IMG/VR virus record: IMGVR_UViG_3300025674_000286
Span: 1 to 28,027 of that record
Strand: one strand, 5' to 3'
DNA from: a virus
Length of the DNA: 28,027 bases
Every line of letters starts with the position of its first letter. Position 1 is the first letter of the stretch. Both the position numbers and the translations under genes were made by a program. Positions 3,927 through 9,029 of the stretch are shown piece by piece. The notes under the pieces were generated by a model. It worked only from the letters and a program-made list of their open reading frames with translations, was not told where the DNA came from and searched no databases.

Positions 3927-4790
3927 ATGAGCACAGTCAGAGTCGAGGAGGGCACGCCTTACCCGTGCGCCGAGTGCGGCGCGGAGATCGTGCCGCGGAC
4001 CATCCGGGCGAGGTGGCTGTCGCACCGGGTCGCGCCCGAGCGGTGCGACCGCTGCCGGGGCGTAGAGTCGGACGAGGACAAGCGGCAGGCCGCGCTGAGG
4101 GCCGCGGGCATCCCGGCCGAGCACGTCGGCTGGTGCTGGACCGGGGCGCACGGGACCCGCCTTGAGGTCGAGTCGCGAGTGCGGAGCACGGTGAGCGAGG
4201 CGCTGCGCCGCACGACGACTCGGGGCAACCCGGCGACCGGCGAGCGCGAGACGGTGGCATGGCGGTCGCTGTGGCTGGAGGGTCCGGTCGGCACCGGCAA
4301 GAGCACGCTCGCCTCGGCCCTGCTGCGGACGATCATCCTGCGGCCGGACAAATCGGGCTTTTCTGCGCCGAGCATCGCGGCCGACGGCTATGCCGAGGTG
4401 CGGCGGGAGCGCGGCGCCGCGATCTCGTCGGGGCTGTGGCTCGATACCCGCACAGTCTCGGCGGCGCTCGACGACAAGGCGAAGCGGGCGGAGCTGACAG
4501 CCCGAGCGAGGGCCTGCGGCCTGCTCGTCTTCGACGATCTCGGGCAGGAGGCGACGGCGTGGTGTGCGCGGGAGATCTGCGAGGTGCTGGAGCACCGGCA
4601 CACGCACCGGCTGGCCACGATCATCACGAGCAACACGGCCACCGAGGGCGGCAGGCCTTTCGCGGGCGCCGCTCAGCGCATGGCCGACCTGCTCGGAGAC
4701 AGCGCGCAGGACGAGCGGCTGCGCTCGCGGTGGGTGCAGCAGTACGGGGAGCCGGTCGTGCTGCGCGGCGAGGATCGGAGGACGCGGTGA
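3927..4790 (+). CDS. DnaC-like AAA+ helicase loader with N-terminal zinc finger
   Basis: 287 residues. N-terminal C14-x2-C17 and C40-x2-C43 form a likely zinc finger. The AAA+ domain follows: Walker A GPVGTGKST (119-127), Walker B LLVFDD (199-204), sensor-1-like TSN (234-236) and a basic C-terminal region with RLRSRWVQQY containing candidate arginine fingers. This matches the DnaC/IstB-like ATPases that load replicative helicase onto origin DNA. The ATG at 3927 is 3 nt after the previous stop, with GGAGGAGC upstream. Its place after the O-like gene and iterons parallels lambda O-P, although it is an ATPase rather than a P-type protein. The phage would use a host helicase, as none is encoded in this window. 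Confidence 0.88.
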   Translation: MSTVRVEEGTPYPCAECGAEIVPRTIRARWLSHRVAPERCDRCRGVESDEDKRQAALRAAGIPAEHVGWCWTGAHGTRLEVESRVRSTVSEALRRTTTRGNPATGERETVAWRSLWLEGPVGTGKSTLASALLRTIILRPDKSGFSAPSIAADGYAEVRRERGAAISSGLWLDTRTVSAALDDKAKRAELTARARACGLLVFDDLGQEATAWCAREICEVLEHRHTHRLATIITSNTATEGGRPFAGAAQRMADLLGDSAQDERLRSRWVQQYGEPVVLRGEDRRTR

Positions 4791-4954
4791 TGCTCAAGCC
4801 TTTCTGGCGGTACTACGGCGGCAAGTGGCGCGCAGCACCGCACTACCCCAAGCCCCGGCACGACACGATCGTCGAACCGTTCGCCGGCGCCCGAACTGCG
4901 TTACCCTTCGGGCGCCCGCCGCCAAGCACGACCACCGCCAGGAGGACACCATGA
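4790..4954 (+). pseudogene. N-terminal remnant of a Dam-type (D12) adenine methyltransferase
   Basis: The frame starts at ATG 4790 (TGATG overlap with the loader; GGAGG 8 nt upstream) and encodes 54 residues. Residues 3-34 read like the start of a Dam/D12 methyltransferase: FWRYYGGKWRAAPHYPKP (S-adenosylmethionine-binding motif X, -GGK-), then HDTIVEPFAGA (motif I, EPFAG). After this, at about 4893, similarity stops and the frame becomes Pro/Thr/Arg filler to a stop that overlaps the C5 methyltransferase ATG. The catalytic DPPY motif is missing, so it cannot be active alone. It looks like the left end of a gene whose middle was replaced; a matching C-terminal scrap lies at 6114-6233. Confidence 0.65.
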
Positions 4955-6117
4955 CCCGCCCCTACCTAGAGTTCTTCGCGGGAGGAGGGATGGTCCGGGC
5001 GGGCCTGGGAGCGAACGGGTGGCGGTGCGCGTTCGCGAACGACTTAGACTTCAAGAAGGGCGCGGCCTACCGGATCAACTGGGACAGTGGCGACGGGTGC
5101 CCGGAGCTGCGAGTCGATGATGTTCGCTTGGTGAAGGCGAGCGACCTTCCGAACGCCGAGCTTGCATGGGCCTCCTTCCCCTGCCAAGACCTCTCGCTCG
5201 CCGGTGGCGGCGCCGGGCTGAAGGGGGAGCGCTCGGGGACGTTCTACCCGTTCTGGGACATCATGCGGGACCTGATCGCAGAGGGTCGAGGCCCGCGCGT
5301 CATCGCGCTTGAGAACGTTACGGGAACCCTCACTTCGCATGGCGGTGCCGACTTCGCGGCGATCTGCAAGACCTACTCCGACGCGGGCTACAGGTTCGGT
5401 GCGCTTGTGATCGATGCGGCGCTGTTCGTCCCCCAGTCGCGCCCCCGGCTGTTCGTCGTCGGAGTCCGATCAGACGTGGTGGTGGCCGACGACCTGCTAT
5501 CACCTGAGCCGCTGGACCCGTTCCATACACGCGCCCTGCGGCGAGCGTTCGATGGTCTGGACGAAGGCGTCAAGGCGAACTGGCTCTGGTGGAACTTGCC
5601 AAGTCCTCCCCGCCGTTCGGCATCCTTTTCGGACGTCATCGAGGAGCAGCCCGAGAGCGTTGAGTGGCACTCGGAAGCTGAGACCGCGGCTATCCTGGCG
5701 ATGATGAGCCCGGTAAACGCTGCGAAGGTAGCGGCCGCGAGGCGCGCTGGTCGTCGGATGGTCGGCGGCATCTACAAGCGAACGCGGCGAGATGACGACG
5801 GCGAGAAGGTGCAGCGCGCGGAGGTCCGGTTCGACGATGTGGCCGGCTGCTTGCGGACGCCTGCTGGGGGCTCCAGCAGGCAGGTGATCATGGTCGTCGA
5901 CGGCGACAAGGTGCGAACCCGCCTCATCTCGTCCCGCGAGACCGCACGGCTGATGGGCCTTCCGGACTCCTACCGTCTACCGGCGCGCTACAACGAGGCT
6001 TACCACCTGACGGGCGACGGTGTCGCTGTGCCGGTTGTCCGGCACCTTGCGGCCCACCTGTTCGAGCGCCTGATCCCCGCTCGCCCGCAGGCGGATCGGT
6101 CCGAGTCTGCTGCATGA
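4951..6117 (+). CDS. DNA (cytosine-5)-methyltransferase
   Basis: 388 residues. The C5 methyltransferase motifs appear in order: I, LEFFAGGGM (6-14); IV, SFPCQDLS with catalytic Cys78; VI, LENV (120-123); VIII, QSRPRLF (162-168); then a variable target-recognition region around 230-300; and IX/X near the end (RETARLMGLPDSYRLP; HLTGDGVAVPVVRHLAAHL). It transfers a methyl group from S-adenosylmethionine to carbon 5 of cytosine, and probably protects phage DNA from a host nuclease. No restriction partner is nearby. Start ATG 4951 has AGGAGG 6 nt upstream. A TACCCT box at 4902-4907 could be its own promoter. Codon use is visibly less G/C-biased than the neighbours, which with the flanking Dam scraps suggests recent acquisition. 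Confidence 0.93.
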   Translation: MTRPYLEFFAGGGMVRAGLGANGWRCAFANDLDFKKGAAYRINWDSGDGCPELRVDDVRLVKASDLPNAELAWASFPCQDLSLAGGGAGLKGERSGTFYPFWDIMRDLIAEGRGPRVIALENVTGTLTSHGGADFAAICKTYSDAGYRFGALVIDAALFVPQSRPRLFVVGVRSDVVVADDLLSPEPLDPFHTRALRRAFDGLDEGVKANWLWWNLPSPPRRSASFSDVIEEQPESVEWHSEAETAAILAMMSPVNAAKVAAARRAGRRMVGGIYKRTRRDDDGEKVQRAEVRFDDVAGCLRTPAGGSSRQVIMVVDGDKVRTRLISSRETARLMGLPDSYRLPARYNEAYHLTGDGVAVPVVRHLAAHLFERLIPARPQADRSESAA

Positions 6118-6233
6118 CGTCGATCCCGTGTGAGAAGAACGCGGAGCTCAAGGGATGCCTGGACGGCAACAACACCCCGTCGCCGGAGGTGATCTGGACC
6201 AACACGCCGCCGCGACAGATCGCGCTGTTCTGA
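6114..6233 (+). pseudogene. Short ORF resembling the C-terminal end of a Dam-type methyltransferase
   Basis: 39 residues from ATG 6114, overlapping the C5 methyltransferase stop as ATGA. The end reads SPEVIWTNTPPRQIALF; EVIWTN is a common C-terminal ending of phage D12/Dam-like adenine methyltransferases, often preceded by a CE pair, also present here (PCEKN). With the N-terminal Dam scrap at 4790-4893, this suggests the C5 gene replaced the core of a Dam gene. Alternatively it is an unrelated small coupled ORF; the match is short. Confidence 0.5.
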
Positions 6234-7741: not shown

Positions 7742-7798
7742 GTTGGTTCTGTGGTAGCGTTAGGGGGCGGCGCTGCAAGTGCCGAGCGGAGGTCAGAC

Positions 7799-8359
7799 GT
7801 GAGCGCAAACGAGCAAACGGCGAGCAATGGCGAGGCTGCTGCGGTGTGGGTTCGGGTCGCAGACCTCACCCCGTGGGAGGACAACCCGAGGCGCAACGAT
7901 GCGGCCGTGCCCGAGGTCATGGCGTCCATCCGTCGGTTCGGCTTCGCCGCTCCAATCGTCGCTCGCAGGGCCGACGGCGAGATCATCGCGGGCCACACCC
8001 GCCTGGAGGCCGCGCGCAGACTCGGCCTCGACCGCGTGCCGGTCCGCTACATGGACCTTGACCCGGCCGACGCGCACCTGCTCGCATTGGCCGACAACAA
8101 GGTGGGCGAGATCGCGGAGTGGGACGACGCCAAGCTTGCGGCGGTGCTTCGCGACCTCGACGTGGGCGAGGCGACCGAGGGGCTGGGGTTCGATGAGGAC
8201 GAGCTGCGCGACCTGCTCGGGACGCTGGGCGAGGACGTGCCGGACTTTGCTCCAGGGACGGAGGATGACCAGGGTCAGCTTGACCAACTTGAACCCAAGA
8301 TCGTGACGTGCCCGCACTGCGGTGAGTCGTGGGATGAGCGGGAACATGGGAAGGGCTGA
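7799..8359 (+). CDS. ParB/Srx-fold protein upstream of mom
   Basis: 186 residues from GTG 7799, chosen for GGAGG about 6 nt upstream; the frame also opens at GTG 7751, but without a ribosome site. Residues 16-110 form a ParB-like nuclease domain: LTPWEDNPR, then the hallmark IIAGHTRLEAARRLG (GHTR at 65-68), then LALADNKVGEIAEWD. The tail ends with CPHCGESW, a half zinc-ribbon. Such proteins often sit beside phage DNA-modification enzymes, and here the 3' end overlaps the start of the Mom-like gene. A role in assisting or directing DNA modification, or as a nuclease, is inferred. A TAGCGT box at 7755-7760 could be its -10. Confidence 0.88.
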   Translation: MSANEQTASNGEAAAVWVRVADLTPWEDNPRRNDAAVPEVMASIRRFGFAAPIVARRADGEIIAGHTRLEAARRLGLDRVPVRYMDLDPADAHLLALADNKVGEIAEWDDAKLAAVLRDLDVGEATEGLGFDEDELRDLLGTLGEDVPDFAPGTEDDQGQLDQLEPKIVTCPHCGESWDEREHGKG

Positions 8360-9029
8360 CCTCCGCATTGACTGGGCGACGCACGCGGCAGCTAAGTATG
8401 CCTGCGAGACGTGGCACTACACCAAGACGCTACCAGTCGGAAAAATGGTCAAGATCGGTGCATGGGAAAGAGGTCGCTTTATCGGGGTGGTGATCTTTTG
8501 CTGGGGCATGAATCGCAGCCTGGGCTCACCCTACGGTCTCGCCATTACAGAGTGCTGCGAACTGGTGCGGGTCGCGCTCGGGCCGCACGATGCGCCAGTG
8601 TCTCGGGTGCTTTCGCTTGCTTTGCGGTTTCTTCGTCATCAGTCGCCAGGGTTGCGCCTAGTGGTGTCCTTTGCAGACCCAGCAGAGGGCCATCACGGCG
8701 GCATCTACCAGGCGACTAACTGGATCTACTCAGGCCGCTCCGCACCCTCATTCGAGTGGCGACACAATGGTCAGCGCCTCAATAAACGGGCATACACTGG
8801 GCAAAACTTCGGGTCACCCAAAATGAAGCCACCGTCAGGCGCAGTCAAGGTCAAGACAGAAGGCAAACACCGCTATCTTATGCCGCTCGACGACGAGATA
8901 CGCGCCCGCGTGTTACTGCTGTCGAAGCCGTACCCTAGGCGCCAGCCCGTAGGGGACTCGGGGGACCACCCCGCAGAAAGGCCGTGCAAGTCGGACCCTG
9001 GCGCTCCATCTTCCCGCTCGGGTGATTGA
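8334..9029 (+). CDS. mom: Mom-like DNA adenine-modification protein
   Basis: About 231 residues from ATG 8334; GTG 8322 and ATG 8346 are alternative starts, all inside the end of the ParB gene. It matches the Mom family of phage Mu: HYTKTLPVGK, then IGAWERGRFIGVVIFCWG, CELVRVALGPH, PVSRVLSLALRFL, and the diagnostic VVSFADPAEGHHGGIYQATN followed by WIYSG. Mom is a GNAT-related enzyme that converts adenine in DNA to the carbamoylmethyl form, blocking many restriction enzymes. Many codons end in A or T (for instance around 8430-8480), unlike the neighbours, indicating recent transfer. Family call is strong; the chemistry is inferred from family. Confidence 0.88.
   Translation: MSGNMGRADLRIDWATHAAAKYACETWHYTKTLPVGKMVKIGAWERGRFIGVVIFCWGMNRSLGSPYGLAITECCELVRVALGPHDAPVSRVLSLALRFLRHQSPGLRLVVSFADPAEGHHGGIYQATNWIYSGRSAPSFEWRHNGQRLNKRAYTGQNFGSPKMKPPSGAVKVKTEGKHRYLMPLDDEIRARVLLLSKPYPRRQPVGDSGDHPAERPCKSDPGAPSSRSGD

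What the first reader, a model, noticed from the sequence alone, without database searches (positions are those of the whole stretch)
4790..6233. A Dam methyltransferase gene apparently split and replaced by a C5 methyltransferase
Upstream of the C5 gene is a fragment with Dam motifs X and I (FWRYYGGKW, VEPFAGA), still coupled to the loader gene. Downstream, overlapping its stop, is a fragment ending SPEVIWTN, a usual Dam ending. The intact C5 gene, with less G/C-biased codons and its own ribosome site, sits where the Dam core should be. This looks like replacement of adenine by cytosine modification at one site, leaving both ends.
Basis: partly seen in the sequence, partly recalled or inferred. 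Interest (0 to 1): 0.7.

Follow-up and report, generated by a model that had tools for sequence, protein, structure and literature searches.

The report
Disarmed restriction system inside phage Dam gene
In this phage genome a DNA-adenine methyltransferase gene was broken open by a restriction-modification gene pair, whose DNA-cutting half was then gutted down to 21 codons while its cytosine methyltransferase stayed intact, leaving an unusually legible fossil of how a phage can swap one DNA mark for another.

Summary
Upstream, 4790-4891 encodes the first 34 residues of a Dam-like adenine methyltransferase (E=1e-17, model positions 2-34 only). Downstream, the 39-codon ORF ends SPEVIWTN, the C-terminal signature of that family (29.5 bits; best of 200 randomised windows 17.6). 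Between them lies an intact C5 methyltransferase (4951-6117) in a GC-poor stretch. The 6114-6233 ORF is not simply a Dam fragment: its first 21 residues are two pieces of a type II restriction endonuclease (N-terminus MTSIPCEKNAEL, catalytic motif ELKGCLDGNNT) that elsewhere is a ~285-aa gene directly following this C5 methyltransferase. So a methyltransferase-endonuclease module entered the Dam gene, and deletions removed most of the endonuclease and the Dam core. The closest relative (L002) and a Sphingomonas plasmid also kept the methyltransferase while breaking the endonuclease. All parts are of known kinds. The value is one readable case of a phage solitary methyltransferase arising by in-situ decay of a restriction-modification system, a route a pan-genome study judged rare. 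Order of events, deletion mechanism and enzyme activity are inferred; no sibling contig covers the locus.

The parts
3927..4790 (+). DnaC-like helicase loader, gene immediately upstream (TGATG overlap with the next ORF)
   Evidence: phrog_50 DnaC-like helicase loader 1.3e-15
4790..4891 (+). 5' remnant of a Dam-like adenine methyltransferase gene: 34 codons with motifs X and I, up to VEPFAGA
   Evidence: 76-88% identity to L016-L021 over residues 1/2-34 only; HMM E=1e-17, model 2-34 of 239; phrog_56 4.5e-5
4892..4950 (+). first bases of the insert: leader of the C5 gene with ribosome site AGGAGG at 4940-4945; read in the Dam frame it gives 20 unrelated residues and a TGA overlapping the C5 ATG
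   Evidence: sequence; Dam-like relatives continue AGYSxRY here instead
4951..6117 (+). intact C5 cytosine methyltransferase, 388 aa, with PCQ, ENV and QSRPR motifs
   Evidence: PF00145 7.4e-42, TIGR00675 2.7e-42, PADLOC MTase_II 4e-109; 74% identical to L002
6114..6149 (+). remnant 1 of the type II restriction endonuclease: its N-terminus MTSIPCEKNAEL, overlapping the C5 stop by ATGA
   Evidence: 37.5 bits against a motif from relatives, next best in window 11.1; in a repeat with 8 relatives 35.8, best of 200 randomised windows 24.2
6144..6176 (+). remnant 2 of the endonuclease: catalytic-motif stretch ELKGCLDGNNT (the two remnants share EL, GAGCTC)
   Evidence: 47.8 bits, next best 19.9; best of 200 randomised windows 17.7; phrog_31486 positions 107-118, E=0.09
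6177..6233 (+). 3' remnant of the Dam-like gene: last 18 codons PSPEVIWTNTPPRQIALF and stop (exact left border uncertain by a few codons)
   Evidence: motif SPEVIWTN at 6180-6203, 29.5 bits against 11.0 for the next best; 71 of 75 relatives carry this motif near their C-terminus
4883..4919 (+). 13-nt imperfect inverted repeat (11-nt loop) straddling the left junction; significance unknown

Best explanation
A type II restriction-modification module (C5 methyltransferase, then its endonuclease gene overlapping it by ATGA) entered the Dam-like adenine methyltransferase gene that followed the phage's helicase loader, joining after Dam codon 34. Deletions then removed residues ~13-107 of the endonuclease, leaving its N-terminus joined to the catalytic-motif stretch, and everything from just after GNNT of the endonuclease through the Dam core, leaving the last ~18 Dam codons. 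What remains is one working-looking gene, the C5 methyltransferase, now solitary and placed in the replication operon by stop-start overlaps on both sides. It most likely methylates a specific site in phage (and host) DNA and so protects the phage from host enzymes that cut that unmodified site. Shown by sequence: the identity of all four pieces, the intact C5 frame, the in-frame joins. Inferred: order of events, deletion by short direct repeats (GAGCTC at EL; a short shared word near GNNT), methyltransferase activity, and the protective role.
For: Both Dam-like ends are found in their expected order and strand. The endonuclease pieces are in their native place, directly after the C5 stop with the same ATGA overlap as in L002 and other loci. 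In nine other viral loci the C5 gene is followed by this gene, full-length (~285 aa) in all but L002, and of the 18 plasmid records whose C5 is at least 61% identical, 16 carry a closely related copy, by comparing the lists. PADLOC names it REase_II with E=4e-157, and vsr genes lie nearby in Menos, AH2 and others. GC falls to 65-68% from about 4900 to 6200 against mostly 71-75% in the flanks. Endonuclease-only damage occurs independently: L002 is truncated, and in a Sphingomonas naphthae plasmid the copy breaks off next to an IS256 transposase gene. C5 differences between window and L002 are mostly at third codon positions, 0.22/0.16/0.55, as expected of a gene kept as protein.
Against: No sibling with an intact Dam-like gene, or with an intact endonuclease inside it, was found, so the order of events is not seen directly. 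An exact 26-mer of the Dam 5' part found nothing in viral contigs, the loader had no confirmed relatives there, and sibling contigs L181 and L182 do not reach the locus. The locus rests on one metagenomic contig. The Dam 3' remnant is only ~18 codons and a whole-profile search alone would not find it (E=7.5); it rests on the 8-residue motif and its position. The C5 gene might have entered already partnered with a damaged endonuclease.
Confidence: 0.85

Rival explanations
1. Direct replacement: a C5 gene already solitary, with an endonuclease stub attached, replaced the Dam core in one recombination event; no working restriction module was ever in this phage.
For: Endonuclease damage with the C5 gene kept occurs elsewhere (L002; Sphingomonas naphthae plasmid), so a donor of this kind is plausible. 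Only one recombination in the phage is then needed.
Against: The endonuclease stub is fused directly to the Dam end, and the internal deletion would have had to precede the transfer; nothing found has the same stub.
Confidence: 0.3
2. The tail SPEVIWTNTPPR is not Dam but a shrunken piece of the endonuclease itself (EEFVIWSVCTNPGADPRH), so there is no 3' Dam end.
For: The aligner placed it there with gaps; the endonuclease has VIW, TN and PR in the same order.
Against: It needs several separate small in-frame deletions; the Dam-like motif SxEVIWTN matches without a gap at 29.5 bits and the other Dam end lies just upstream.
Confidence: 0.05
3. The flanking short ORFs are independent small genes kept for a function, for example for translational coupling.
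For: Stop-start overlaps at 4790, 4951 and 6114; both joins keep the frame open.
Against: Each piece matches the end or middle of a much longer protein and stops abruptly at a junction; no relative with the same short ORFs was found.
Confidence: 0.04
4. Assembly chimera of a Dam-bearing phage and a restriction-modification locus.
For: Single metagenomic contig; GC shifts at the borders.
Against: A chimera would not leave the two ends of one Dam-like gene on either side of the insert, nor two separated endonuclease pieces joined in frame.
Confidence: 0.03

Closest known systems
Type II restriction-modification module of Burkholderia phages Menos and AH2 (C5 methyltransferase, PADLOC REase_II PDLC03501, vsr)
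   Same: C5 methyltransferase 67% identical; endonuclease start overlaps the C5 stop; the window's 6114 ORF begins with the same N-terminus and holds the same catalytic motif
   Different: In the window the endonuclease is reduced to two pieces totalling 21 codons; no vsr seen directly after it; inserted in a Dam-like gene
Dam-like phage adenine methyltransferases (L016-L101), fold of E. coli Dam, DpnM and T4Dam
   Same: First 34 residues and last ~18 residues of the gene
   Different: Core of ~180 residues with the DPPY motif is gone, so no activity is to be expected
Solitary (orphan) phage methyltransferases
   Same: Intact methyltransferase without a working partner endonuclease in a phage; the kind is described in PMC4176335 and PMC12707154
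   Different: Here the partner's remnants are still readable next to it; PMC4176335 concludes from 43 pan-genomes that solitary genes rarely arise by decay of complete systems
Actinophage methylases with inserted elements (PMC9957025)
   Same: Phage methylase genes as targets of insertions and within-gene recombination
   Different: There an intein, a homing endonuclease and a domain are the insertion elements; here a restriction-modification module that destroyed the gene

Membership tests
C5 cytosine DNA methyltransferase | significant match over the full domain with PCQ, ENV and QxRxR motifs | tested here: met
   PF00145 residues 6-371, 7.4e-42; TIGR00675 145.6 bits over cut-off 100.65; motifs PCQDLS, ENVTG, QSRPR in the translation
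C5 cytosine DNA methyltransferase | methylates a defined site | not testable with these tools
   no assay; recognition site unknown
Dam-like (D12 class) adenine methyltransferase, for the disrupted gene | 5' end with motifs X (YYGGK) and I (EPFAGA) | tested here: met
Dam-like (D12 class) adenine methyltransferase, for the disrupted gene | C-terminal SxEVIWTN-type end in the same family | tested here: met
   71 of 75 relatives have it; window motif 29.5 bits
Dam-like (D12 class) adenine methyltransferase, for the disrupted gene | Pfam MethyltransfD12 above gathering score | tested here: inconclusive
   window remnant: no match (too short); relatives L023, L049 and L136 below the cut-off, L120 above it; L022 no match
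Dam-like (D12 class) adenine methyltransferase, for the disrupted gene | fold of Dam, DpnM and T4Dam (tested on the intact relative L022) | tested here: met
   AlphaFold pLDDT 93.6; Foldseek top hits Mcbe1, E. coli Dam, DpnM, T4Dam, E 3e-9 to 1e-5
Dam-like (D12 class) adenine methyltransferase, for the disrupted gene | catalytic core with motif IV DPPY present in the window | tested here: not met
   nothing between residue 34 and the tail; no other significant match to the family profile in six frames
Type II restriction-modification system, present-day window locus | intact endonuclease beside the methyltransferase | tested here: not met
   only 21 of ~285 codons remain
Type II restriction-modification system, ancestral module | partner gene is a restriction endonuclease by family model | tested here: met
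   relatives L003 and L004: PADLOC REase_II 4e-157 and 3e-134
Type II restriction-modification system, ancestral module | PD-(D/E)XK fold and motif in the partner | tested here: inconclusive
   invariant D94 and E108-x-K110 and a helix-strand core, but pLDDT 65.7 and best Z only 4.3; nucleases such as LlaBIII, McrBC, Hjc, FokI and EcoRV make up most of the list
Type II restriction-modification system, ancestral module | cleavage and methylation of the same site | not testable with these tools
   no assay

The most novel reading that the evidence does not exclude
Phages exchange their DNA mark by a repeatable route: a selfish restriction-modification module lands in the phage's own methyltransferase gene, is disarmed by deletion at short repeats, and its methyltransferase is kept in the replication operon. 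The locus would be an intermediate of a general way in which phage solitary methyltransferases arise.
Probability: 0.25. Interest if true: 0.65.

Novelty: new member of a known kind. Interest (0 to 1): 0.45.

Why it matters
Solitary methyltransferases are common in phages while complete restriction-modification systems are rare there. A pan-genome study (PMC4176335, read) concluded that solitary genes rarely arise by decay of complete systems. This locus, L002 and the Sphingomonas plasmid copy are cases where the decay can be read directly, with the same half (the endonuclease) lost each time. It also shows a change from an adenine to a cytosine methyltransferase at a single position behind a replication gene, with both breakpoints placed to within a few codons.

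Tried and rejected
The first Pfam and PHROG scans of the Dam 5' piece (protein 3) used 4791-4954, one base out of frame; they are void and were repeated in frame. An exact-codon search for PEVIWTN in viral contigs gave 8 hits, none in a Dam-like gene, so 'usual Dam ending' could not be taken on trust; it was settled by collecting the family and scoring its ends. The 39-aa ORF is too short for the search for related loci. Attempts to find sibling phages through the loader, the capsid and an exact 26-mer gave none covering the locus. No promoter passes the consensus scan upstream of the C5 gene. The endonuclease family was not found in 395 Actinomycetes genomes; that search had no positive control, so it says little. 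A solved-structure sequence search with the endonuclease gave only chance hits. The exact microhomology at the endonuclease/Dam join cannot be fixed without the ancestor; relatives have short shared words there. ScmA of Caulobacter (PMC12907096) was read as a lead for the recognition site (YGCCGGCR), but its relation to this C5 family was not tested.

Full report
What was checked. The window is a 28,027-base IMG/VR virus record. The finding concerns three consecutive ORFs behind a DnaC-like helicase loader (3927-4790): a 54-codon ORF (4790-4954), a C5 methyltransferase (4951-6117) and a 39-codon ORF (6114-6233), all on the + strand and linked by stop-start overlaps (TGATG at 4788-4792, ATGA at 4951 and at 6114).

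The upstream piece. Residues 1-34 of the 54-codon ORF match intact ~235-aa methyltransferases in other viral contigs at 76-88% identity, and every match ends at residue 34, after VEPFAGA. With 73 relatives collected from viral and genome contigs, the profile hits the window at E=1e-17 over model positions 2-34 of 239. The remaining 20 codons are unrelated and end in the TGA that overlaps the C5 start. The border is 4891/4892. The intact relative L022 is predicted with high confidence (pLDDT 93.6) and resembles Mcbe1, E. coli Dam, DpnM and T4Dam (Foldseek E 3e-9 to 1e-5), so Dam-like is justified, although most tested members score under Pfam's D12 cut-off.

The downstream piece. Its last part is one: 71 of 75 relatives carry a motif of the form SxEVIWTN near the C-terminus, and a score matrix from those ends, which does not include the window, gives SPEVIWTN at 6180 a score of 29.5 bits. 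The next best of 50,582 six-frame positions in the window has 11.0 bits, and the best of 200 randomised windows 17.6. The whole-family profile alone would not have found it (E=7.5).

The missed part. The nearest relative of the C5 gene, L002 (74% identical), has behind it, with the same ATGA overlap, a longer ORF containing ELKGCLDGNNT, which also stands in the middle of the window's 39-codon ORF. In phages Menos and AH2, in L005 and in five further viral contigs this is a ~285-aa gene directly after the C5 gene. PADLOC assigns it to a type II restriction enzyme family with E=4e-157, and vsr genes lie nearby in several cases. In plasmids, 16 of the 18 records with a C5 gene at least 61% identical to the window's also carry a closely related copy of this gene (my comparison of the lists). 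The window's ORF starts with its N-terminus, MTSIPCEKNAEL (37.5 bits, next best 11.1), and jumps at EL to its catalytic-motif stretch, ELKGCLDGNNT (47.8 bits, next best 19.9); randomised windows reach at most 24.2 and 17.7. The 39-codon ORF is therefore a mosaic: endonuclease N-terminus, endonuclease core piece, Dam-like C-terminus.

Reading. A restriction-modification module entered the Dam-like gene, and deletions removed most of the endonuclease and the Dam core. The most economical version is a clean insertion after Dam codon 34, one deletion from the endonuclease core into the Dam end, and one deletion inside the endonuclease between two EL codon pairs (GAGCTC in the window). Relatives show similar short words at these places, but the repeats themselves are inferred. 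A single replacement by an already damaged pair remains possible (about 0.3). Foreign origin agrees with a GC drop to 65-68% between about 4900 and 6200 against mostly 71-75% around it, and with a lower GC3 than the loader and the following two genes, though some other window genes are also low.

What remains. The C5 gene is full-length with all main motifs. Differences from L002 fall mostly on third codon positions, 0.22/0.16/0.55, so it has been kept as a protein over that divergence; whether it has been under selection since the endonuclease was lost cannot be tested without siblings. Its likely role, by inference from established phage biology, is to protect the phage from host enzymes that cut its site unmethylated. 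The site is unknown.

Context. The same half of the module is broken elsewhere: in L002 similarity ends after residue 158, and in a Sphingomonas naphthae plasmid the match ends after residue 144 shortly before an IS256 transposase gene, with methyltransferase and vsr kept. PMC4176335 reports that complete systems are nearly absent from phages, that solitary methyltransferases are abundant there, and that solitary genes rarely come from decay of complete systems. This locus is a legible counter-example, but only one.

Limits. One contig, no sibling covering the locus, no reads. The endonuclease fold prediction is weak (pLDDT 65.7, best Z 4.3), so its nuclease identity rests on the PADLOC family model, the invariant D and ExK residues and gene context. 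Novelty is modest: all parts are known kinds; the interest is in the preserved intermediate.

Noticed in passing
window 8322-9029: Mom-like DNA modification protein (phrog_1384, 4e-52) directly after a ParB-like ORF (7751-8359); its GC of 60% is lower than its neighbours. The phage thus carries a second DNA-modification gene.
   Followed up: no
L002:7140-7652: In the nearest relative of the C5 gene the partner endonuclease is also broken: similarity ends after residue 158 of 285.
   Followed up: partly
L192:3001-4732 (Sphingomonas naphthae plasmid): Endonuclease match ends after residue 144 just before an IS256 transposase gene, with the C5 methyltransferase and vsr kept: another endonuclease-only loss.
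   Followed up: partly
window 4883-4919: 13-nt imperfect inverted repeat with 11-nt loop straddling the left junction; left arm mostly in Dam sequence, right arm in the insert.
   Followed up: no
window, whole: Several six-base palindromes are rarer than a Markov expectation: ACCGGT 0 vs 8.3, CAGCTG 1 vs 10.0, GACGTC 2 vs 14.3, AGGCCT 2 vs 12.8; possibly avoidance of host restriction sites.
   Followed up: no
L015:1-2843 (Achromobacter phage CF418P1): A gene annotated as C5 methylase and an intact Dam-like methyltransferase lie one gene apart, so the two kinds of gene can coexist in one phage.
   Followed up: no
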